Shown: positions 9,480 to 44,142 of the stretch, piece by piece | Position numbering within the stretch: the first letter of the stretch is position 1 | How the letters are laid out: each line of letters opens with the position of its first letter | Source: Candidatus Adlerbacteria bacterium | GTDB taxonomy: Bacteria; Patescibacteriota; Minisyncoccia; Phycocordibacterales; SBAW01 | DNA length: 44,897 nucleotides | Direction of reading: 5' to 3' | Assembly (NCBI GenBank): GCA_003135635.1 | Contig: PLCJ01000002.1 | Coordinates: 1 to 44,897, forward strand | Translations under genes and position numbers: made by a program | The notes under the pieces: generated by a model | Told to the model about the DNA's origin: nothing | Databases searched by the model: none | Seen by the model: only the letters and a program-made list of their open reading frames with translations

Positions 9480-11138
9480 ATGCCGATAAGTGACTCCACG
9501 CACCGCGACCAACCCAAATATATTTTTGTCGTCGGTGGGGTCATGTCGGGGATCGGTAAGGGCATAGCGGTTTCAGCAATCGGAAGAGTTCTTAAATCAA
9601 AAGGATTTGGTGTCACCGCGATCAAAATCGATCCGTATATTAACGTGGATGCGGGCACTATGAACCCGACGGAACACGGTGAAGTCTTCGTTCTTGACGA
9701 TGGATTTGAGACCGACCAAGACATGGGCAACTACGAGCGATTCTTGGATATATCACTGCCAGAGATTAACTATCTCACCACAGGACGGGTGTATCTTGAA
9801 GTCATTCGCAAAGAACGCAATCTCGAGTACAAAGGTAAAAATGTTGAGGTGGTGCCGGATATCCCTGCAGAGGTTATCCGTCGCATTATGCAAGCACAAA
9901 AAAATGCGAGTGCTGATATCACACTCATCGAAATAGGAGGTACCATCGGCGAGTATCAAAATATTATTTTCCTTGAGGCTGCTCGGATGCTTAGGCAGAA
10001 ATATCCGCGTGATGTGGCGGTGGTCATGGTGTCCTACGTTCCTATTCCAAGCAATATCGGTGAGATGAAAACAAAACCGACGCAATATGCTGCCCGCTCG
10101 CTCAACAGTGCTGGACTTCAAGCGGATATAATTCTGGCACGTGCAGTAAAACCCATTGATCAAAAGCGCAAGGAAAAGATCGCGACCTCGTGCAATATAA
10201 TTCCTGAGCATGTTATCTCGGCGCCTGATGAAGAAAGTATTTACGATGTACCCTTACATTACGAAAAAGATAATCTGGGCGATATATTATGTGACGTGTT
10301 GGGACTTGACCATCGACCCACTAATTTCGGACAGTGGGAGGCGTTTATTCAGAAGTCAAAAGAAAGCATAGATACGGTTGAGATTGCGGTTGTGGGCAAA
10401 TACTTCGACTCTGGAGACTTCGTTCTCTCGGATGTTTATATCTCGGTCCTTGAAGCTCTGAAACATGCCGCATACCATAATAATTGCAAACCGAAGATCA
10501 CTTACTTTAATTCTAAAGATTTTGAATCGGGTAAACTGCCACTTTCTGCGCTTGATGCGTACGGCGGTATACTCATACCTGGCGGATTTGGAGAAACAGG
10601 AGTGGAAGGGAAGATACAAGTGATCGAGTACGCCCGTGTCCATAAAATTCCATATTTTGGACTGTGCTACGGGATGCAACTTGCGGTCGTGGAGTACGCG
10701 CGCAATGTCGCAGGTCTTGTGAGTGCACATACCACCGAGATTAATCCTCAGACACCCCATCCAGTCATTGCAGTTATGGAGAGTCAAAAAAAACACTTAG
10801 CGGAAAATATCTACGGGGGAACTATGCGTCTGGGTGCGTATCCGTGTGTCGTCGTGGAGGAAACACTCGCGGCAGAAGCGTACGGCAAGGAGATGATTTC
10901 AGAACGTCATCGGCATCGTTTTGAGGTAAATCCTCACTATGTTAAAGAGCTAGAGAAGAGCGGTTTGGTGTTTTCCGGAAAATCCCCAGACGGAGTACTT
11001 ATGGAAATCGCCGAGCTTCCTAGAAGTCAGCACCCATTTTTTGTGGGAACGCAATTTCATCCAGAGTTTCTTTCCCGTCCGCTTAATCCGCACCCACTTT
11101 TTTGTGCTTTTATACTAGCTGCCCATAAGCGTCATTAG
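9480..11138 (+). CDS. pyrG: CTP synthase
   Basis: KYIFVVGGVMSGIGKGI, KIDPYINVDAGTMNPTEHGEVFVLDDG, GATase nucleophile FGLCYGMQ, QFHPEF. Confidence 0.96.
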   Translation: MPISDSTHRDQPKYIFVVGGVMSGIGKGIAVSAIGRVLKSKGFGVTAIKIDPYINVDAGTMNPTEHGEVFVLDDGFETDQDMGNYERFLDISLPEINYLTTGRVYLEVIRKERNLEYKGKNVEVVPDIPAEVIRRIMQAQKNASADITLIEIGGTIGEYQNIIFLEAARMLRQKYPRDVAVVMVSYVPIPSNIGEMKTKPTQYAARSLNSAGLQADIILARAVKPIDQKRKEKIATSCNIIPEHVISAPDEESIYDVPLHYEKDNLGDILCDVLGLDHRPTNFGQWEAFIQKSKESIDTVEIAVVGKYFDSGDFVLSDVYISVLEALKHAAYHNNCKPKITYFNSKDFESGKLPLSALDAYGGILIPGGFGETGVEGKIQVIEYARVHKIPYFGLCYGMQLAVVEYARNVAGLVSAHTTEINPQTPHPVIAVMESQKKHLAENIYGGTMRLGAYPCVVVEETLAAEAYGKEMISERHRHRFEVNPHYVKELEKSGLVFSGKSPDGVLMEIAELPRSQHPFFVGTQFHPEFLSRPLNPHPLFCAFILAAHKRH

Positions 11139-32242: not shown

Positions 32243-33013
32243 TCAAGGAACGAGAGTGTGCGTTAAGAGAATATCTTCTATAAATCTTGCTGTTTCTTCC
32301 GGACCAGAGACCTCCTGCGTACGCACGCCTGTCTCGATGACAACAGCATCGTTACCACCCTCCTTTAACGTATCACCCACATACAACATCTCCGACACTG
32401 AAATGCCGCTGATATCTGCAAGTTGACGGATACCGTAGGCTTTGGTGATACCTTTGCGAGTGATGTCGATTGAGCTAGTTGCATTCACTGCCACAGAGCA
32501 TTCCGGAAGACGCCGTAGAAGAGCTGCGCGCAGCGGCATACGCTTTAATTTATCAGGATCCCACCTACTTTTTATTTCAAAGGGTGCTTTTTGTCCAAGA
32601 GCAGAGAATGTTATTTCACCACCACGATCTTCTATGCGCTCTCCCCATACCTGTGTTGGGGGCTCAGCAAGCCCCGTTTCTTTCAAGGCTTCATTAAGAG
32701 CTCCCATGATATGTGTTTTTTCCTCTGGGGTAAAAGTATGATCATACCGAGAATGCCATGCATGATTTTCAAACACATAGCACGCTGCCGCACTGGTGGG
32801 GAAGAGGTAGAGGCGCTCAAGAGGAGTATTCATGGGCAGCGCAGGAAGAAGCTGATTTTCAAATTGATGGAAGGCCGCCCCCGATAGCACTGCGATCGGC
32901 ATTTTTTGCATGAGTTTACAAAGAAGCTCACCCATATCAGCAGAAACGCGCTGCTTGCTCTCAGCCAGTGTGCCGTCAAGATCAAATGCAACAAGTTTCG
33001 GTTTGAAATCCAT
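32243..33013 (-). CDS. HAD-IIB hydrolase, eukaryotic-type phosphomannomutase-like
   Basis: VAFDLDGTLAESKQ, NATSSIDITRKGITKAYGI, MLYVGDTLKEGGNDAVV (GGND as in PMM). Confidence 0.8.
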   Translation of the reverse strand: MDFKPKLVAFDLDGTLAESKQRVSADMGELLCKLMQKMPIAVLSGAAFHQFENQLLPALPMNTPLERLYLFPTSAAACYVFENHAWHSRYDHTFTPEEKTHIMGALNEALKETGLAEPPTQVWGERIEDRGGEITFSALGQKAPFEIKSRWDPDKLKRMPLRAALLRRLPECSVAVNATSSIDITRKGITKAYGIRQLADISGISVSEMLYVGDTLKEGGNDAVVIETGVRTQEVSGPEETARFIEDILLTHTLVP

Positions 33014-33024
33014 TTTTTTATTTC

Positions 33025-34950
33025 TTACTGCAAATTATCTGGAAGCAAAATCTTCAGCAATTGCTTCAGCGATACTCTTGCTACTCCTATGACTGTGTCC
33101 GCTGCGCCGTAATAGATATGGAGTGTATTGCCGCGAACTACCATGCCACAGGAAAAGACCACGTTGGGGACCTGCCCTACGCGCTCATAGGACTCTGAGG
33201 GTTCAAAGATGGTGTCAACTGTGCGCGAGATTACTACTGAAGGGTTCTTCAAATCCAGAAGTACAGCGCCAAGGCGATAGGTTAAGGTCTTTGACACACC
33301 ATGGTAAATGAGGAGCCAGCCCTTACTTGTCTTTATTGGCGGTCCAGCAATACCTATCTTTATACTGTCCCACATGCCGGGGCGTGGTCCTATTATCTCG
33401 ATACAGCGGGCAAGTCGGCTCTTGCTGAAATCAAGCGTATCGACGAAATCAGCGCACAACTGTGGGTCAATGCGATGAAAGATCATATATTGGCCGCCGA
33501 TTTTTTCCGGTAGGAGACAGGTATCTTTCTCATTAATGTTATTGGGTGTTATAAGCTGAGGCTTTTGCCACCTATCCCATCTTTTTTCTAAAAAATCTTT
33601 TGCGGAAATTGAAGTGAGTGCGACGCGCGTTGGATTAACACCATCAAATGCCGTGTAGGCCATATAAATGGTATTGCCGATTTTCGTGATACGTGGATCT
33701 TCGCAGCCGGAGTTACCATTTGAATTTCCTTTTTTCATCTCGAAATCCTCCCGGGGTGTATAGACCGCTTCAGGCAAGCGCTCGTTTATTTTTATGCCAT
33801 TTTTTGTCGATGCGTATCCTATAACTGAAGTGTTAGTATCACCCATTGCCCGGTACAACAAATGTACCGAACCGCCAAGGTCTATTGCTGCGGAGTTAAA
33901 CACAGCTTTTTTCTCCCATGAGTGCTCTTCAATTGGCCTTAGTATTGGATTCTCTTTTGCTCGCAGAACAAGTTCTATACGCCGCTCGGGTACCATGACA
34001 TTGAGAAGATCCTGCAGATTAAGTGATGCTCGGGCGCACACGGTGTCCGCGGCGCCATAGTAGATATCAACGCGACCGTTTTTATGGAGCAATGCTCCGG
34101 AAGGGAAGACGATATCGGGCACCATGCCGTATTTCTCATAAATATCCTCCGGCACCATAATGGGGCCCTTTGTTCTTCCTATAATTTGGCATGGATCTTT
34201 CAGATCAAGCAGAAGTGCTTCGATGCCGTAAACTCGTTCCCCTCCGCCAAAATAATTTTGAATATACGAGTAGAACATGAGCCACCCACTCTTTGTTTTT
34301 ATGGGAGGAGCACCAACCTCGACATGGTCATGGTCAAAGCGCAGCGGGTTAATAGTGTATTCACGCATGTCGGCATGCCACTTTTCCCAAAAAGACGGAT
34401 TCCACAACTCTTCTAGCGTATCCACTTGTACTATGGCGATGTGTGCAGGAGGTTCGTCGGTGTGCGCGGTAAGCACAGCGGTTATTTTTCCCCCGATGCG
34501 CTGGGGGAAGAGTGTCATAGCTTTGGCATTAAACGGCGTGATGAGATGCTTCTCATCTATATGTTCCAAATCTTTTGAAAGTGCTGCTGCAACCTTGATA
34601 TTCCCCGGGCCAAACGGCACGCCACCAAGCGCTGTATAGAAAATGACATACTGTCCTTCAAAAAAAGTGACTCGTGGGTCTTCACATCCATATTTTTCCC
34701 ATGGCTCCTGGGGAACGATGAACTGCCGACGATTTTGAAAGTGTTCGCCATCCATCGAAAGCGCTTTACCGATGGTTGAAATACCACCTGGTGCCACGAG
34801 CACGTCAGGACTCCCGAGCGCGCGATAGAGAAGATGCGTCATAGTGCCGCTGCGCACGGGAGACGGATTGAAGGTAGCGCGTGATTCCCATGGTCTGTCG
34901 GTCAGAGGAGCAATAAGCGGATTATGCGAGCCGCGTTTGATGACGTACAT
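33025..34950 (-). CDS. Tandem (two-domain) GH130 family glycoside phosphorylase/hydrolase
   Basis: Two homologous halves, each with GCEDPR (YGCEDPRVTFFEGQYVIFYTA; SGCEDPRITKIGNTIYMAYTAFDG), GxPPIKTxxGWLxxYH/Y and YYGAADT. Confidence 0.88.
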   Translation of the reverse strand: MYVIKRGSHNPLIAPLTDRPWESRATFNPSPVRSGTMTHLLYRALGSPDVLVAPGGISTIGKALSMDGEHFQNRRQFIVPQEPWEKYGCEDPRVTFFEGQYVIFYTALGGVPFGPGNIKVAAALSKDLEHIDEKHLITPFNAKAMTLFPQRIGGKITAVLTAHTDEPPAHIAIVQVDTLEELWNPSFWEKWHADMREYTINPLRFDHDHVEVGAPPIKTKSGWLMFYSYIQNYFGGGERVYGIEALLLDLKDPCQIIGRTKGPIMVPEDIYEKYGMVPDIVFPSGALLHKNGRVDIYYGAADTVCARASLNLQDLLNVMVPERRIELVLRAKENPILRPIEEHSWEKKAVFNSAAIDLGGSVHLLYRAMGDTNTSVIGYASTKNGIKINERLPEAVYTPREDFEMKKGNSNGNSGCEDPRITKIGNTIYMAYTAFDGVNPTRVALTSISAKDFLEKRWDRWQKPQLITPNNINEKDTCLLPEKIGGQYMIFHRIDPQLCADFVDTLDFSKSRLARCIEIIGPRPGMWDSIKIGIAGPPIKTSKGWLLIYHGVSKTLTYRLGAVLLDLKNPSVVISRTVDTIFEPSESYERVGQVPNVVFSCGMVVRGNTLHIYYGAADTVIGVARVSLKQLLKILLPDNLQ

Positions 34951-34977
34951 ATTAAAAGTAGTATAGCTTATTGCTTA

Positions 34978-36075
34978 CTACTCAGCGTTTTCTTGTGTCA
35001 TTAATTTCTTTAAAAATTCCTCGAGGTTCATCTTTGCCACGGCGATATGTTTATCGCCGCCGCCGTAATACACCAAAAGATCATCTCCTACTACAACGGT
35101 GCCTGAGGCATACGTGACCCCCGGCTTCCAGTCGTTCTCATACCACTCCTGTGCTTGAAGGATGGGATGGGAGGAACGGTAGAGCACTTTCGTCGGATCA
35201 TTGAGATCAAGAAGCATCGCCCCAACTTTGTAGGCCACCGTTGCATGTGCAGGGTCAAATCCATGATAAAAAAGAAGCCAGCCATAAGGAGTTTTTACCG
35301 GTGGTGCACCCGCGCCACGTACAAGCTTGTCCCAGTGATCCTTACGGCCGCCACTTCGCGCACTCCCTTCAATAAACTTAGTCCCGTCAAATACATTGAG
35401 GTCTTCTACATATTCGATACGGATATGCGGAGAAATACTGTGTAATATTGCGAATTTTCCTTGTATTTTCTCAGGAAATAGCATCCAATTTTTTTGTGTT
35501 TCCCCGGGGGGCGAAAGCATGACCGATGGTTTCCATTTCCAATTTTTATTGCGGAAGTCATCAAGCCCAATTGAGGTGAGTGCCATACGCAGGAAATTCC
35601 AACCATCAAAGGCAACGAAAGTCATGTAGACCATCTCGTCTATCTTTACGAGTCGTGGATCCTCGGCGCCACCCCAGCCACCGCCGGAAGCATAGGTGAA
35701 GGGGTCATAGGAAAGAGGCCTCTTATGTGTGCGATCAAGGCGCGGGATACAAAGAGGCGTATACACCGGATAGGGGAGTCGCTCATCAAAATTGATACCA
35801 TCTGCACTTGAAGCATACCCGATGCGGGAGATACCATCTTTGCCGAGCCCACGATATAAAAGGTGTACGCGACCATCGCTGTAGAGCGCTGCTGGGTTGA
35901 AGATTGCTTCGGACTCCCACCAGTGATCGGCTACTGGCTTAAGGATAGGGTTCTCTCTCGCACGGCGAAGAGTAAAAGTCTGGCGCTTATGAAGTGCTCC
36001 GATGAGTACGGCACAAAAAAGTGCTATGACAACAAGCGCAATGAAGGTAAGAAACTCACTTAGTGCGACGTTCAT
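34978..36075 (-). CDS. Membrane-anchored GH130 family protein
   Basis: N-terminal TM (FLTFIALVVIALFCAVLIGAL) followed by a GH130 domain: GGAEDPRLVKIDEMVYMTFVAFDG, GAPPVKTPYGWLLFYHGFD, YYGGGD. Confidence 0.88.
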   Translation of the reverse strand: MNVALSEFLTFIALVVIALFCAVLIGALHKRQTFTLRRARENPILKPVADHWWESEAIFNPAALYSDGRVHLLYRGLGKDGISRIGYASSADGINFDERLPYPVYTPLCIPRLDRTHKRPLSYDPFTYASGGGWGGAEDPRLVKIDEMVYMTFVAFDGWNFLRMALTSIGLDDFRNKNWKWKPSVMLSPPGETQKNWMLFPEKIQGKFAILHSISPHIRIEYVEDLNVFDGTKFIEGSARSGGRKDHWDKLVRGAGAPPVKTPYGWLLFYHGFDPAHATVAYKVGAMLLDLNDPTKVLYRSSHPILQAQEWYENDWKPGVTYASGTVVVGDDLLVYYGGGDKHIAVAKMNLEEFLKKLMTQENAE

Positions 36076-36425
36076 GTTCGCCCGTACTTATCATTTAACC
36101 GAGTGATATCCTTCTCGTCGAAGTTCCCGAAGGCTATCTCAAGAAACTGCAGTCCCTCTGGGCCGCCCTCGACGCGATGTGTTGAATGCCGCGGACTAAA
36201 GAATGTATCACTTTCACGAGCATTGAAATTTTTCTCTCCTATCTGTATGGTTCCAGAGCCTTTGATAATGCGCCAGAATTCGTCGCGGTGTTCGTGCGTT
36301 TGTAAACTAGTAGCTTCTCCAGCATGAATGGTTATTATTTTTACAGTCGTTTTCTCATTGAGCGTGAATCGCTCGAAATCCCCCCAGGGACGAATTTCTT
36401 TCTCGTAATTAGAGAGACCCTCCAT
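36072..36425 (-). CDS. Phosphomannose isomerase type II-like cupin
   Basis: IRPWGDFERFTLNEKTTVKIITIHAGEATSLQTHEHRDEFWRIIKGSGTIQIGEK...LNDKYGR; 4-bp stop/start overlap with the downstream GH130. ATG 36425 preferred over 36488. Confidence 0.87.
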   Translation of the reverse strand: MEGLSNYEKEIRPWGDFERFTLNEKTTVKIITIHAGEATSLQTHEHRDEFWRIIKGSGTIQIGEKNFNARESDTFFSPRHSTHRVEGGPEGLQFLEIAFGNFDEKDITRLNDKYGRT

Positions 36426-36564
36426 GTTATAAGTATACGCGAAAATTTTATGTGTGGTGCTAGGAACATAAGGAAGCCTCTCCCTCACGGGATTGTCATA
36501 GTCCGTAACAATGGTGTATAACTAGCTATTATTAATGTGATTAAAGGTAATAAAGATAAATACT

Positions 36565-39913: not shown

Positions 39914-41677
39914 TTATTGAATAGTGTAAGAAACATTATGCGGGGCAAAAAACGGCCACACACGGTCCGTCTCGATATACCACTGTCGTACGTTAAGAAA
40001 CCGGTCACTCGGTATGCCTATAGTACCAAGATCAACTCCTGCGACGTTGTTGGGTATACTATACAGGTAATCGGGCGTATAGAGAAATATCGCAGGGAGG
40101 TCATTTTGCAACTGCGCATCAAATTGTTTATAGAGTTGTTGCTGGAGCGCTCGATTACTAGCCCCTCTCAATTGACTCAATATTTTATCGGCGATGGGGT
40201 TTGCGTACATCGCAATATTAAGTCCTGGATTGTTGCGCTCGCTTGAGCTCCAGAATGCATAGAGATCTGGCTGGCGGCCAATAACCTCTCCAAATAAAAG
40301 TGCACTATAGGAACGCGGACCGATAACGTTTTGTGCTAAGTCGCCCTGACTGAATACCTTTATATCAACATGCGCGCCCATCTTACCCCAGGCATCGCTG
40401 AAGTACTGCGCGGCCGCATTGAGTTCAGGAGTGTCGGCAGTGGTAAGGGAGAAGGAGAGAATTTCTGTTGTCGCTGATTTTCCACTTCCACTGGTTTTTT
40501 GCAAAGTGCCATCAGTGCCCGGCTTCCATCCTGCGTCAAGAAGCATTTGCCGAGCGCTTGCGATTGATACGGCGGCACTCCCTACATTTGTTGTATCAAC
40601 ATCTGAGGGCAACGGGCCATTTATCGGCGTGCCATATCCATTTAATACGTGCGCAATAAGATCGGGCTTATCGATGGCTGCCGAGAGAGCCGCGCGTACC
40701 GTTTTATCTTGGAGCACAGGCGATTGGCTCTCGTTGAAAAATACTCCGTAGATACGATTGAGGGGCGCACTCGTAATAGGAAAACCCGTAAGATTGGAGA
40801 GATTTTCCGGTGACAATCCCCCCGCTGCTCCTATCTCGCCTCCCTTAAGGGCCGCTTCAAGTGCAGCTTCACTTTGGTAAAACCTCAGGGTTATATTTGA
40901 CAGATATGGTTGACCAAGTGTGTTACTCCCAAAAGCAGAAAGGGTATAAGAAGAGGGAATACCATCTGAGCCTTGTTTAATGGACGCTATGCGGTAGGGA
41001 CCCGAGCCGACAGGGTTGGTATTGAGATTACTGAATGGAAAATTGTCATCGCTCACAGCACTCCAAAGATGTTTTGGTAATATCCCAAGAGTAAGATTGT
41101 CTATAAAGGGTGCGTAGGACTGCTTCAGTGTAAACACTATGGTATGAGGATCAGCTGCTGTGACCGTTACGCCATTCCAGTTGGCGCTCACCGGACTTTT
41201 AAGCGCCGGATCCTGTGTTTTTTGAATGGTAAATACAACATCGTCCGCAGTAACAGGCGTCCCGTCGTCAAAGGTGGCGTTGGGGCGCAGTACAACAGTA
41301 TAGGTGAGGCCGTCGCTTGAGATGGTATAGCTTTGCGCTAAATCCGGCGCGTAGGAGCCATCAGGCATTGCCCGCAGAAGTCCCGAGTACACCAGTTGGG
41401 TGAGGTCGTGGTCGGCGTCTGAAATTGCCAATACTGGGTTGATGAAACGAGGAGTCCCAATGATACCTTCTGTAAGTGTTCCTCCATAGGAGGGAATGGT
41501 GACCAGTATCGCACCATTTAGAAGATACAGAAGAGCAAAAGAGCACACGACGCATACAGCTGCAAAAAAACAAAAAACAACCTGACCACTTAGCGAAAAG
41601 GACCGGAGTGTACTCTCCGTGGTATCCAAAAATGGCAGGGAAACCAGCCGAGACAGGCTACGCCAAAAGTCACGCAT
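39914..41677 (-). CDS. ABC-type peptide substrate-binding protein (SBP family 5), TM-anchored
   Basis: GGTLTEGIIGTPRFINPVLAISDADHDLTQLVYSGLL, FDDGTPVTADDVVFTI; N-terminal TM instead of a lipobox. Confidence 0.9.
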   Translation of the reverse strand: MRDFWRSLSRLVSLPFLDTTESTLRSFSLSGQVVFCFFAAVCVVCSFALLYLLNGAILVTIPSYGGTLTEGIIGTPRFINPVLAISDADHDLTQLVYSGLLRAMPDGSYAPDLAQSYTISSDGLTYTVVLRPNATFDDGTPVTADDVVFTIQKTQDPALKSPVSANWNGVTVTAADPHTIVFTLKQSYAPFIDNLTLGILPKHLWSAVSDDNFPFSNLNTNPVGSGPYRIASIKQGSDGIPSSYTLSAFGSNTLGQPYLSNITLRFYQSEAALEAALKGGEIGAAGGLSPENLSNLTGFPITSAPLNRIYGVFFNESQSPVLQDKTVRAALSAAIDKPDLIAHVLNGYGTPINGPLPSDVDTTNVGSAAVSIASARQMLLDAGWKPGTDGTLQKTSGSGKSATTEILSFSLTTADTPELNAAAQYFSDAWGKMGAHVDIKVFSQGDLAQNVIGPRSYSALLFGEVIGRQPDLYAFWSSSERNNPGLNIAMYANPIADKILSQLRGASNRALQQQLYKQFDAQLQNDLPAIFLYTPDYLYSIPNNVAGVDLGTIGIPSDRFLNVRQWYIETDRVWPFFAPHNVSYTIQ

Positions 41678-41689
41678 GAAGCTTATGAA

Positions 41690-41920
41690 TTATTTAACGG
41701 TGAGAGCAATGAACGCTGACAGGGCAAACAATATACTGATAGCAATGGTGGTGTAAAAGAGATATTTCTCCAAGCCACGACGAGTATTATACGTTGCGCT
41801 GAAGTTATCTCCGCCGAGCGCCCCACCGAGAGACGCTCCCGTTTGCTGGAAAAGCACAGAAACGATAAGCACAACGGAGAGCACTATCTGGATGTACGGG
41901 AGTATCCCCTGCAGGATCAT
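41690..41920 (-). CDS. secG: Preprotein translocase subunit SecG
   Basis: ILPYIQIVLSVVLIVSVLFQQTGASLGGALGG...RRGLEKYLFYTTIAISILFALSAF. Confidence 0.88.
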   Translation of the reverse strand: MILQGILPYIQIVLSVVLIVSVLFQQTGASLGGALGGDNFSATYNTRRGLEKYLFYTTIAISILFALSAFIALTVK

Positions 41921-42012
41921 TGCTCTTGACTCTAGCACGATTTATCCGTAGATGCAATTTGACATTCTTAAAAATCACTGCGGGCAAAGACGCAATGACG
42001 CTCTTGGCATTC

Positions 42013-42120: not shown

Positions 42121-42489
42121 ATGAAAAAAAAGAAACACGCAAGGACTACTGCAGCAAAAAAGCAAAACAGTAAAAAAATTCTTCCCAATACCTCGGGCAT
42201 TATGCCACTGGCTGACCGTATCTTGGTAAAGCCGCTCTCGGCTGAGGAAATGAACAAGACCACTTCCTTTGGCATCATCATTCCTGACAGCGCTAAAGAA
42301 AAGCCCGAACAAGGCACCGTAATAGCAGTTGGTCCTGGCAAGCGCACGGACAGCGGCGAAACGTTGACCCCCGGAGTCAAAGTTGGAGATAAGGTGATGT
42401 TTTCTAAATACGGCTACGATGAAGTCAAAATCAATGGCGTTGAGTACTACATCGTAACCGAGAGTAATATATTAGCGATTCTTAATTAA
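42121..42489 (+). CDS. groS: Co-chaperonin GroES with Lys-rich N-terminal extension
   Basis: MPLADRILVKPLSAEEMNKTTSFGIIIPDSAKEKPEQGTVIAVGPG..., followed by groEL. Confidence 0.93.
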   Translation: MKKKKHARTTAAKKQNSKKILPNTSGIMPLADRILVKPLSAEEMNKTTSFGIIIPDSAKEKPEQGTVIAVGPGKRTDSGETLTPGVKVGDKVMFSKYGYDEVKINGVEYYIVTESNILAILN

Positions 42490-42498
42490 CGTATATTT

Positions 42499-44142
42499 AT
42501 GGCAAAGCAGATTATTTTCAATGAACGCGCACGCCGCGCACTTAAAAGCGGTATCGATAAATCAGTGGGTGCCGTACGTGTGACGCTCGGTCCGCGGGGA
42601 CGCAATGTGGCTCTCGATAAAGGCTACGGAGCTCCCACGATTACCAACGACGGTGTCTCCATCGCTAAGGAAATCTCGCTTCGCGATAGATTTGAAAACA
42701 TGGGAGCCGAGATTGTGAAAGAAGTCGCGAGCAAAACAAACGATATCGCTGGAGACGGGACCACCACCTCCGTGGTGCTTTTGCAAGCAATTGTTGAGGA
42801 GGGAATGAAACACACCGAGGCGGGACTCAATGCCATGGCGGTGCGCTCCGGTATTGAAAAAGCAACCGCTGATGCGGTTGTGGCACTCAAGGCTCTTGCA
42901 AAGAAAATTCAAAGCGACGAAGAGGTGCGCCAGGTTGCTACCATCGCCGCACAGTCTGAAAGTATCGGTACCATTATTGCCGATACCATCAAAGAGGTGG
43001 GGAAAGATGGCGTTGTGACAGTGGAGGAATCGCAATCCCTTGGTATTGAAAAGGAGGTCGTGGAAGGACTTGAATTTGACCGCGGCTATATCTCGGCCTA
43101 TATGCTCACCAACGTCGAGCGCATGGAAGCATCCTACCGCGATTCGCTTATACTCGTCACTGATAAAAAGATTTCTTCGGTGCAAGAGATTCTCCCCATA
43201 CTTGAAAAGGTTGCTCAGAGTGGCAAAAAGGATCTGGTCATTATCGCGGAGGATGTCGATGGAGAAGCGCTTGCCACATTCGTCGTTAATAAAGTGCGCG
43301 GCACATTCAATGTGCTTGCAATCAAAGCACCCGGATACGGGGAGCGCAAAAAAGAAATGCTTCAAGATATCGCTGTTATGGTTGGCGCAGAAGTTGTTTC
43401 TGAAGATGTCGGAATAAAGTTTGAAAATGTCACGCTCAATATGCTTGGCCGTGCAGGGAAAGTCATTTCGACCAAGGATTCAACTATTCTTGTGGGAGGC
43501 AAGGGTGCCAAAAAAGATATAGATAACCGCGTCGCACAGATTCGCGCGCAGATAGCAAATATTGACTCGAAATTCGATAAGGAAAAACTGGAAGAGCGAC
43601 TTGCAAAGCTCACCGGGGGAGTGGCGGTTATTCGTGTGGGTGCCGCGACAGAAACTGAGATGAAGTATTTGAAACTTAAAATCGAGGATGCAGTCAACGC
43701 CACGAAAGCGGCTATAGAGGAGGGTATTGTTGCGGGGGGTGGATCAGCGTTCATTAAGGCCGCACAGAAACTTTCAGAGTCTTTTGCAAAACACAAAGAA
43801 TCTATGTCGCCTGATATGCGTGTTGGTTACGAAGTGGTACTGAAAAGTCTTGAAAGCCCACTCAGACAAATCGCACACAACGCCGGAGCTGACAGTGGGG
43901 TGATCGTCAATGGGGTCCGCTCGGCAAAAGGCAATGCTGGCTACGACGCAATAAGCGGAGAGATCGTGGGGGATATGATTGCCGCGGGTATTGTTGATCC
44001 AGTGAAAGTAACGCGCACGTGTCTTGAGCGTGCGGCTTCCGCGGGAGCAATGCTTCTTACCACTGAGGCTGCGGTAGCTGAAGAGCCTAAAGACGAAAAA
44101 ACTCCATCCATGCCCTCCGGTATGGATGATATGGATTATTAG
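42499..44142 (+). CDS. groL: Chaperonin GroEL
   Basis: VTLGPRGRNVALDKGYGAPTITNDGVSIAKEI, AGDGTTT, VAGGGSAF. Confidence 0.97.
   Translation: MAKQIIFNERARRALKSGIDKSVGAVRVTLGPRGRNVALDKGYGAPTITNDGVSIAKEISLRDRFENMGAEIVKEVASKTNDIAGDGTTTSVVLLQAIVEEGMKHTEAGLNAMAVRSGIEKATADAVVALKALAKKIQSDEEVRQVATIAAQSESIGTIIADTIKEVGKDGVVTVEESQSLGIEKEVVEGLEFDRGYISAYMLTNVERMEASYRDSLILVTDKKISSVQEILPILEKVAQSGKKDLVIIAEDVDGEALATFVVNKVRGTFNVLAIKAPGYGERKKEMLQDIAVMVGAEVVSEDVGIKFENVTLNMLGRAGKVISTKDSTILVGGKGAKKDIDNRVAQIRAQIANIDSKFDKEKLEERLAKLTGGVAVIRVGAATETEMKYLKLKIEDAVNATKAAIEEGIVAGGGSAFIKAAQKLSESFAKHKESMSPDMRVGYEVVLKSLESPLRQIAHNAGADSGVIVNGVRSAKGNAGYDAISGEIVGDMIAAGIVDPVKVTRTCLERAASAGAMLLTTEAAVAEEPKDEKTPSMPSGMDDMDY

What the first reader, a model, noticed from the sequence alone, without database searches (positions are those of the whole stretch)
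32243..36425. Compact GH130 + PMM-like HAD + PMI-like cupin cluster: candidate minimal mannoside phosphorolysis route
Four co-directional minus-strand genes with very short gaps: PMI-type cupin, TM-anchored GH130, double-domain GH130, PMM-like HAD. Characterised GH130 enzymes include mannoside phosphorylases that yield mannose-1-phosphate. A PMM would convert this to mannose-6-phosphate and a PMI to fructose-6-phosphate, so the cluster could encode a full ATP-sparing path from mannosides to glycolysis, or the reverse. Such a path would be notable in a reduced genome. The pathway assignment is inference; family membership is read from motifs.
Basis: partly seen in the sequence, partly recalled or inferred. 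Interest (0 to 1): 0.72.

Follow-up and report, generated by a model that had tools for sequence, protein, structure and literature searches.

The report
Four-gene mannose-1-phosphate / β-mannan module
A very small bacterium carries four adjacent genes that together look like a reversible, nucleotide-free route between fructose-6-phosphate and a β-linked mannose polymer, and since no other enzyme turning fructose-6-phosphate into another hexose phosphate was found in this genome, the polymer may be its stored or surface sugar.

Summary
Four overlapping or tightly spaced minus-strand genes (32243-36425) encode a type-II-PMI-like cupin, a membrane-anchored GH130, a two-propeller GH130 and a PMM-type HAD. 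The set is conserved: of 46 related genomes with the double GH130, the HAD lies within 6 kb in 39 and the cupin in 37. One relative fuses cupin to GH130; another has a classical phosphohexomutase beside the GH130 pair and no HAD. In this 602-kb genome (95% complete) I found no other PMI or phosphohexomutase, no PGI, no PF00483 sugar nucleotidyltransferase and no glycogen genes. The grouping F6P-Man6P-Man1P-β-mannoside is therefore well supported by genomics. Two corrections: the GH130s belong with β-1,2-mannoside phosphorylases, and only one of three GH130 domains (C-terminal half of the double protein) keeps the full phosphorylase signature; the membrane-anchored one is rewired and the third is hydrolase-like at one position. 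And catabolism of external mannosides is not shown: no maltose-type importer was found, the anchor predicts a cytoplasmic catalytic domain, and relatives put glycosyltransferase and lipid-phosphatase genes beside the cluster. I favour synthesis and turnover of an endogenous β-mannan. Activity, linkage and direction are untested.

The parts
36072..36425 (-). Single-domain cupin of the type-II mannose-6-phosphate isomerase family (117 aa from the ATG; the ORF runs to a GTG at 36488)
   Evidence: PF01050 E 1.6e-19. Q-x-H-x-x-R-x-E, distal H and E-x-D-x-x-R-x-x-D-x-Y-x-R motifs shared with E. coli CpsB's PMI domain. Fused to GH130 in L126.
34978..36075 (-). Membrane-anchored GH130 (365 aa): one N-terminal TM helix, catalytic domain predicted cytoplasmic, rewired anion site
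   Evidence: PF04041; TM orientation; fold closest to 9gph Teth514_1788; R166 to S, K200 to V, new Arg at column 201, His219 kept.
34006..34950 (-). N-terminal GH130 propeller of the double protein (about residues 1-315): lacks the phosphorylase signature, has a hydrolase-like Glu
   Evidence: 24/24 homologous domains keep Asn/Asp/Asp of the -1 subsite and have Glu at the column of BT3780 Glu268; none has R166, K/R200 or H219.
33025..34005 (-). C-terminal GH130 propeller of the double protein (about residues 316-641): canonical beta-1,2-mannoside phosphorylase signature
   Evidence: 25/25 homologous domains keep D98, K148, R166, K/R200, H219; 41% identity to 7fip in the fold search.
32243..33013 (-). 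HAD-type phosphohexomutase of the PMM/alpha-PGM family (256 aa)
   Evidence: PF03332 over cut-off; 4bnd E 1.8e-39, PMM2 4e-11; DxDGTL, GD....GGND and a PMM-like S-x-D motif where L. lactis alpha-PGM has T-x-N.

Best explanation
The four genes form one operon-like module that links fructose-6-phosphate to a beta-(probably 1,2-)linked mannan without nucleotide sugars. The cupin interconverts F6P and Man6P. The HAD interconverts Man6P and alpha-Man1P. The C-terminal GH130 domain of the double protein reversibly adds mannose from Man1P to the chain end, releasing phosphate, or removes it. The membrane-anchored GH130, whose catalytic domain faces the cytoplasm, primes, extends or holds the chain at the inner face of the membrane. 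The N-terminal propeller of the double protein binds or trims the chain. I think the net role is synthesis and turnover of the cell's own beta-mannan (a mannogen-like reserve or an envelope glycan); run backwards, the same enzymes feed F6P to the PfkB-type kinase, aldolase, GAPDH and PGK. Shown here: gene content, conservation, residues, predicted fold, and what was not found in the genome. Inferred: activities, linkage, direction and the role of the polymer.
For: Conserved linkage: HAD within 6 kb in 39/46 and cupin in 37/46 GH130 genomes; co-occurrence Fisher p outside the focal genus 2e-8 and 1e-10, not corrected for phylogeny. Natural cupin-GH130 fusion in L126. PF02878 phosphohexomutase beside the GH130 pair in G062, which has no HAD; HAD-less GH130 genomes have PF02878 in 3/5 against 3/41 with HAD, p=0.012. 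A Man1P guanylyltransferase beside the cluster in G030. Canonical phosphorylase signature and beta-1,2-associated Lys in the C-terminal domain, 25/25. Own genome: no match to PF02878, PF00483, PF00342, PF10432, PF01238, nor to E. coli GlgP/GlgC/GlgB. So Man1P has no detected nucleotidyl route of that family and F6P no detected glucose-phosphate exit. Anchor orientation N-out/C-in in every TM homologue tested, strongly basic tails in four others. GT4, PAP2-type phosphatase, VTT and alpha/beta-hydrolase genes beside the cluster in congeners. Lower glycolysis to PGK and transketolase present.
Against: No activity data. Phosphorolysis is reversible, so residues cannot set direction. No dedicated priming or export enzyme is recognised in the window. 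The GT4/PAP2/VTT neighbours are not adjacent in this genome, and no PAP2 or alpha/beta-hydrolase homologue of them was found in it. GMD is present, so GDP-mannose is probably used somewhere. Absences rest on a 95% complete assembly.
Confidence: 0.55

Rival explanations
1. Catabolic route: imported beta-mannosides are phosphorolysed by GH130 to Man1P, the HAD gives Man6P, the cupin gives F6P, and lower glycolysis yields ATP.
For: Known precedent for GH130-PMM-PMI catabolism in Bacteroides (PMC4264767). Canonical phosphorylase domain. PfkB-type kinase, class II aldolase, transketolase, GAPDH, PGK, TPI present. No glucokinase found, so a phosphorolytic entry would save ATP.
Against: No transporter gene in the cluster and no MalE/F/G-type importer found in the genome. 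No mannan hydrolase in the cluster. Membrane anchoring is unexplained. Free mannose left at the chain end would be lost without a hexokinase.
Confidence: 0.25
2. Man1P supply for GDP-mannose or another NDP-mannose, as proposed for Thermoanaerobacter Teth514_1788/1789.
For: GMD over the curated cut-off in this genome. Guanylyltransferase next to the cluster in G030. Cupin fused to a CTP_transf_like domain, next to the HAD (G111, G040) or GMD-like genes (G040, G100).
Against: This genome and most cluster-bearing congeners lack any PF00483 protein, and no homologue of the CTP_transf_like protein was found here. Such a supply would not need three GH130 domains.
Confidence: 0.12
3. The GH130 proteins are mainly hydrolases or binding proteins and the HAD is an alpha-phosphoglucomutase, so the genes do not form one mannose pathway.
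For: N-terminal propeller lacks the phosphorylase signature and has a hydrolase-like Glu; TM protein lacks two signature basic residues. Nearest solved structure of the HAD is alpha-PGM.
Against: 25/25 intact signature in the C-terminal domain. HAD homologues keep the PMM-like S/T-x-D motif in 37/38. No PGI found, so Glc6P would be disconnected. Cupin-GH130 fusion.
Confidence: 0.08

Closest known systems
[quoted passage not shown]
   Same: Best sequence and fold match; Glu-Asp pair, K148, R166, K/R200, H219 in the C-terminal domain; two GH130 genes side by side (PMC4264767)
   Different: Thermoanaerobacter proteins are single-domain and soluble, and their genes sit with ABC transporter and guanylyltransferase genes. 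Here there are three propellers, one membrane-anchored, with PMI and PMM genes and no transporter.
Leishmania mannogen cycle (GT108 enzymes)
   Same: Beta-1,2-mannan as a cytoplasmic reserve made and broken by propeller enzymes around Man1P (PMC3290622, PMC8950772)
   Different: GT108 is only a distant fold match (6q50, 6q4w: 12-17% identity). Leishmania elongation uses GDP-mannose; this genome shows no PF00483 guanylyltransferase.
Bacteroides GH130-PMM-PMI catabolism of beta-mannosides
   Same: Same reactions Man1P-Man6P-F6P (PMC4264767)
   Different: No uptake genes found here; mutase and isomerase are a HAD and a stand-alone cupin.
L. lactis alpha-phosphoglucomutase (4bnd) and eukaryotic PMM
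   Same: Same HAD-IIB family, DxD and GGND motifs
   Different: S/T-x-D sugar-site motif as in PMM2, not T-x-N as in the L. lactis enzyme.

Membership tests
GH130 (PF04041) | Pfam model above curated cut-off; five-bladed propeller | tested here: met
   133 and 333.6 bits against 26; AlphaFold models (pLDDT 83.9, 89.2) match GH130 structures first
beta-1,2-mannoside phosphorylase (GH130) | -1 subsite Asn28, Asp98, Asp287 (Teth514_1789 numbering) | tested here: met
   All three domain types, 72/72 sequences
beta-1,2-mannoside phosphorylase (GH130) | Basic and His residues present in phosphorylases and absent in hydrolases (columns R166, K200, H219) | tested here: inconclusive
   Met in the double protein's C-domain 25/25; not met in its N-domain 0/24; TM protein keeps only H219 plus a shifted Arg
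beta-1,2-mannoside phosphorylase (GH130) | Lys associated with beta-1,2 linkage (K148 column; Arg in the beta-1,4 enzyme TM1225) | tested here: met
   Lys in 72/72. Equivalence with BT3780 Lys199 passes through an insert, so it is probable, not certain
beta-1,2-mannoside phosphorylase (GH130) | Phosphate-dependent cleavage or Man1P-dependent synthesis | not testable with these tools
   Needs purified enzyme
NCBIfam NF052550 beta-1,2-mannobiose phosphorylase equivalog | Score above 450 bits | tested here: not met
   445.6 (double, two domains) and 214.1 (TM protein)
GH130 hydrolase (BT3780 type) | Pair of Glu (227, 268) | tested here: not met
   Only the Glu268 column is Glu, and only in the N-domain of the double protein
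Type II PMI (PF01050) | PF01050 above cut-off and conserved cupin motifs | tested here: met
   70.6 against 23.6 bits; motifs shared with CpsB
Bifunctional GMP-PMI (TIGR01479) | Guanylyltransferase domain plus cut-off 372.95 | tested here: not met
   70.1 bits, C-terminal part only
HAD-type PMM (PF03332) | PF03332 above cut-off; DxDGT; GGND | tested here: met
   28 against 22.4 bits; motifs
HAD-type PMM (PF03332) | Phosphomannomutase activity | not testable with these tools
   Closest structure is alpha-PGM
GT108 mannogen enzymes | Closer to GT108 than to GH130 | tested here: not met
   GH130 structures rank first, Leishmania entries rank 36 or later

The most novel reading that the evidence does not exclude
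In these reduced Parcubacteria genomes the mannose branch has replaced the glucose branch. With no PGI, no alpha-phosphohexomutase, no PF00483 sugar nucleotidyltransferase and no glycogen genes found, F6P can leave central metabolism as hexose phosphate only through this module, which builds a beta-mannan directly from Man1P at the inner membrane. A membrane-anchored GH130 with a re-engineered anion site would act as a dedicated synthase, with a phosphorylase partner for recovery: a bacterial, nucleotide-free counterpart of mannogen or glycogen.
Probability: 0.3. Interest if true: 0.82.

Novelty: new variant of a known kind. Interest (0 to 1): 0.6.

Why it matters
Patescibacteria are thought to make little of their own material, and what they store or coat themselves with is mostly unknown. 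A conserved module that could make and recover a polymer from F6P without spending nucleotide triphosphates on activation would explain how cells lacking the usual sugar nucleotidyltransferases can still build a glycan, and gives a concrete target (β-1,2-mannan) to look for in cultured relatives. It also shows a GH130 lineage whose anion site has been rewired, useful for understanding how phosphorylases, hydrolases and transferases interconvert in this fold.

Tried and rejected
(1) Membership in GT108: rejected by fold ranking. (2) Plain hydrolase reading of the GH130s: rejected for the C-terminal domain by residues. (3) GDP-mannose supply as the main role: weakened by absence of PF00483. (5) HAD against PF02878 exclusion over all genomes is not significant (p=0.16); only within GH130 genomes is it (p=0.012). 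(6) GH130 against PGI exclusion is significant overall (p=0.005) but not outside the genus (p=0.13), so it is not a main argument. (7) Literature search for GH130 with Patescibacteria/Parcubacteria: the one clearly relevant paper reports two GH130s without signal peptides in a Microgenomates genome, no module described in the passages read; four other GH130-Patescibacteria hits were not read. (8) The cupin search against PDB returned only weak oxalate-decarboxylase and other cupin matches. (9) Predicted models gave fold only; whether the shifted Arg of the TM protein fills the phosphate site could not be measured.
Full report
Observation. The window is contig C2:1-44897 of a 602,608-base, three-contig genome, 95.3% complete. 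Named relatives that carry the same genes are Candidatus Taylorbacteria, Adlerbacteria and Kaiserbacteria. The four reported genes are present and correctly bounded. The cupin starts at the ATG at 36425, overlaps the membrane-anchored GH130 by 4 bp, and the next gaps are 27 and 11 bp, then 140 bp to the next gene. Pfam calls are over cut-off for PF01050, PF04041 (both proteins) and PF03332. The three GH130 domains here are the only ones in the genome.

Conservation. Of 118 genomes from the same genus, family and order, 46 have the double GH130 protein, nearly always with a second GH130 gene next to it. The HAD lies within 6 kb on the same contig in 39 of 46 and the cupin in 37 of 46; outside the focal genus the co-occurrence has Fisher p of 2e-8 (HAD) and 1e-10 (cupin), uncorrected for shared ancestry. 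Gene order varies between families while the set stays together. The GH130 pair also recurs in other orders of the class and elsewhere in the phylum.

Functional coupling. In L126 (G058) the cupin and a GH130 domain are one 430-residue protein. In L074 (G062), which has neither HAD nor PF01050 cupin, a four-domain PF02878-80/PF00408 phosphohexomutase lies beside the GH130 pair. GH130 genomes without the HAD have PF02878 in 3 of 5 cases, against 3 of 41 with it (p=0.012). In L066 (G030) a guanylyltransferase with a ManC β-helix domain and a PMI cupin lie divergently beside the cluster. These independent arrangements point to Man6P/Man1P as the shared metabolites.

What was not found in the genome. 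There is no PF02878 phosphohexomutase (present in all 14 control genomes), no PF00483 nucleotidyltransferase (14 of 14 controls), no PF00342 PGI (12 of 14 controls), and no PF10432 or PF01238. E. coli ManA, CpsG, Pgm, Pgi, PfkA, Glk, GlgP, GlgC, GlgB, enolase and pyruvate kinase gave no match; TpiA, Pgk, GAPDH, aldolase and transketolase did. A PfkB-family kinase sits beside the aldolase and transketolase genes. No MalE, MalF or MalG homologue was found. These absences are provisional because the assembly is incomplete, but cluster-bearing congeners share several of them.

Residues. I aligned 23 membrane-type, 24 N-terminal and 25 C-terminal domains with four phosphorylases and two hydrolases of known structure (reference sequences read from the alignments). 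The -1 subsite residues named for Teth514_1789 (Asn28, Asp98, Asp287; PMC4264767) are kept in all 72. Three columns are basic or His in all four phosphorylases and lost in both hydrolases: R166, K200 and H219. I use them as a phosphorylase signature; that they hold the phosphate is inferred, not shown. The C-terminal domain of the double protein has all three in 25 of 25. The membrane-type domain has lost R166 in 21 of 23 and K200 in 21 of 23, has gained an Arg one position on from K200 in 21 of 23, and keeps H219 in 21 of 23; the two exceptions that keep R166 and K200 (L074, L076) are the sister branch to the rest, so the change looks derived. The N-terminal domain of the double protein has none of the three and has Glu in 24 of 24 at the column of BT3780 Glu268, one of two candidate bases of the hydrolases (PMC4599007). 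The Lys linked to β-1,2 specificity is present in 72 of 72, with a caveat about an insert in BT3780. The three domain types are three clades, and membrane-type and C-terminal domains are sisters (97% SH-aLRT).

Location. All TM homologues tested have a more positive C-terminal flank, so by the positive-inside rule the catalytic domain is predicted on the cytoplasmic side; in four other families the helix is replaced by a strongly basic tail, and in others by an extra N-terminal region. The models (pLDDT 83.9 and 89.2) match Teth514_1788 and 1789 first.

HAD and cupin. The HAD's nearest structure is L. lactis α-phosphoglucomutase, then PMM2. At the sugar-site motif it has S-x-D like PMM2, and so do most homologues (S or T in 37 of 38, D in 37 of 38), where the L. 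lactis enzyme has T-x-N. I read it as a phosphomannomutase, but its specificity is untested. The cupin shares the metal-binding motif and the E-x-D-x-x-R-x-x-D-x-Y-x-R tail with the PMI domain of E. coli CpsB.

Direction. Phosphorolysis is reversible; the characterised relatives were shown to work in both directions (PMC4264767). Points for synthesis and turnover of an endogenous polymer: no importer found; anchoring at the inner face of the membrane; GT4, PAP2-type phosphatase, VTT and α/β-hydrolase genes beside the cluster in congeners; and PMI and HAD genes that persist without GH130 (G004, G017, G020, G022, G111), in G111 with the cupin fused to a nucleotidyltransferase-like domain, that is, in an apparently anabolic setting. 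Points for catabolism: a canonical phosphorylase domain, lower glycolysis as far as PGK, and precedent in Bacteroides (PMC4264767). I put about 0.55 on the endogenous β-mannan reading and 0.25 on the catabolic one.

Comparison with the known. The reactions are known; the arrangement (three GH130 propellers, one membrane-anchored with a rewired site, with a stand-alone PMI cupin and a HAD mutase, in genomes where no PGI or sugar nucleotidyltransferase was found) was not described in the passages I could search and read. I rate it a new variant of a known kind.

Noticed in passing
L110:8496-9305, L116:7619-8515, L117:6280-7149; stand-alone copies L089:3976-4422, L076:4787-5224, L074:21-518: A HIGH-type (CTP_transf_like) nucleotidyltransferase is fused to the PMI cupin near HAD or GMD-like genes, and stands alone beside the GH130 cluster in other genomes: a candidate Man1P nucleotidyltransferase unrelated to PF00483.
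   Followed up: partly
L107:7243-7692, L108:8192-8635, L112:8465-8737: In congeners without GH130, a HIT-domain protein sits between cupin and HAD in the place of the GH130 pair (next to the HAD at a contig end in L112).
   Followed up: partly
G000:C3:239178-240215 and C3:226000-249000: The genome has GMD and several GT4 glycosyltransferases although no PF00483 nucleotidyltransferase was found; nucleotide sugars may be taken from a host.
   Followed up: partly
L086:1219-4462 and matching stretches in L066, L068-L073, L107, L108: VTT/DedA-type, GT4, alpha/beta-hydrolase and PAP2-type phosphatase genes lie beside the cluster in many congeners but not in this window.
   Followed up: partly
L075:9821-11056, L077:9204-10493, L078:9628-10998, L081:10176-11648: Homologues of the membrane-anchored GH130 carry a Lys/Arg-rich N-terminal tail instead of a TM helix.
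   Followed up: no
L091:6001-6882 and 9784-10650: A Woesearchaeota contig carries a phosphorylase-like and a hydrolase-like GH130 close together.
   Followed up: no
window 39914-41677, 41690-41938, 42121-44142: Oligopeptide-type solute-binding protein (SBP_bac_5) next to RNase J, then sequences that read like SecG, GroES and GroEL; unrelated to the finding.
   Followed up: no
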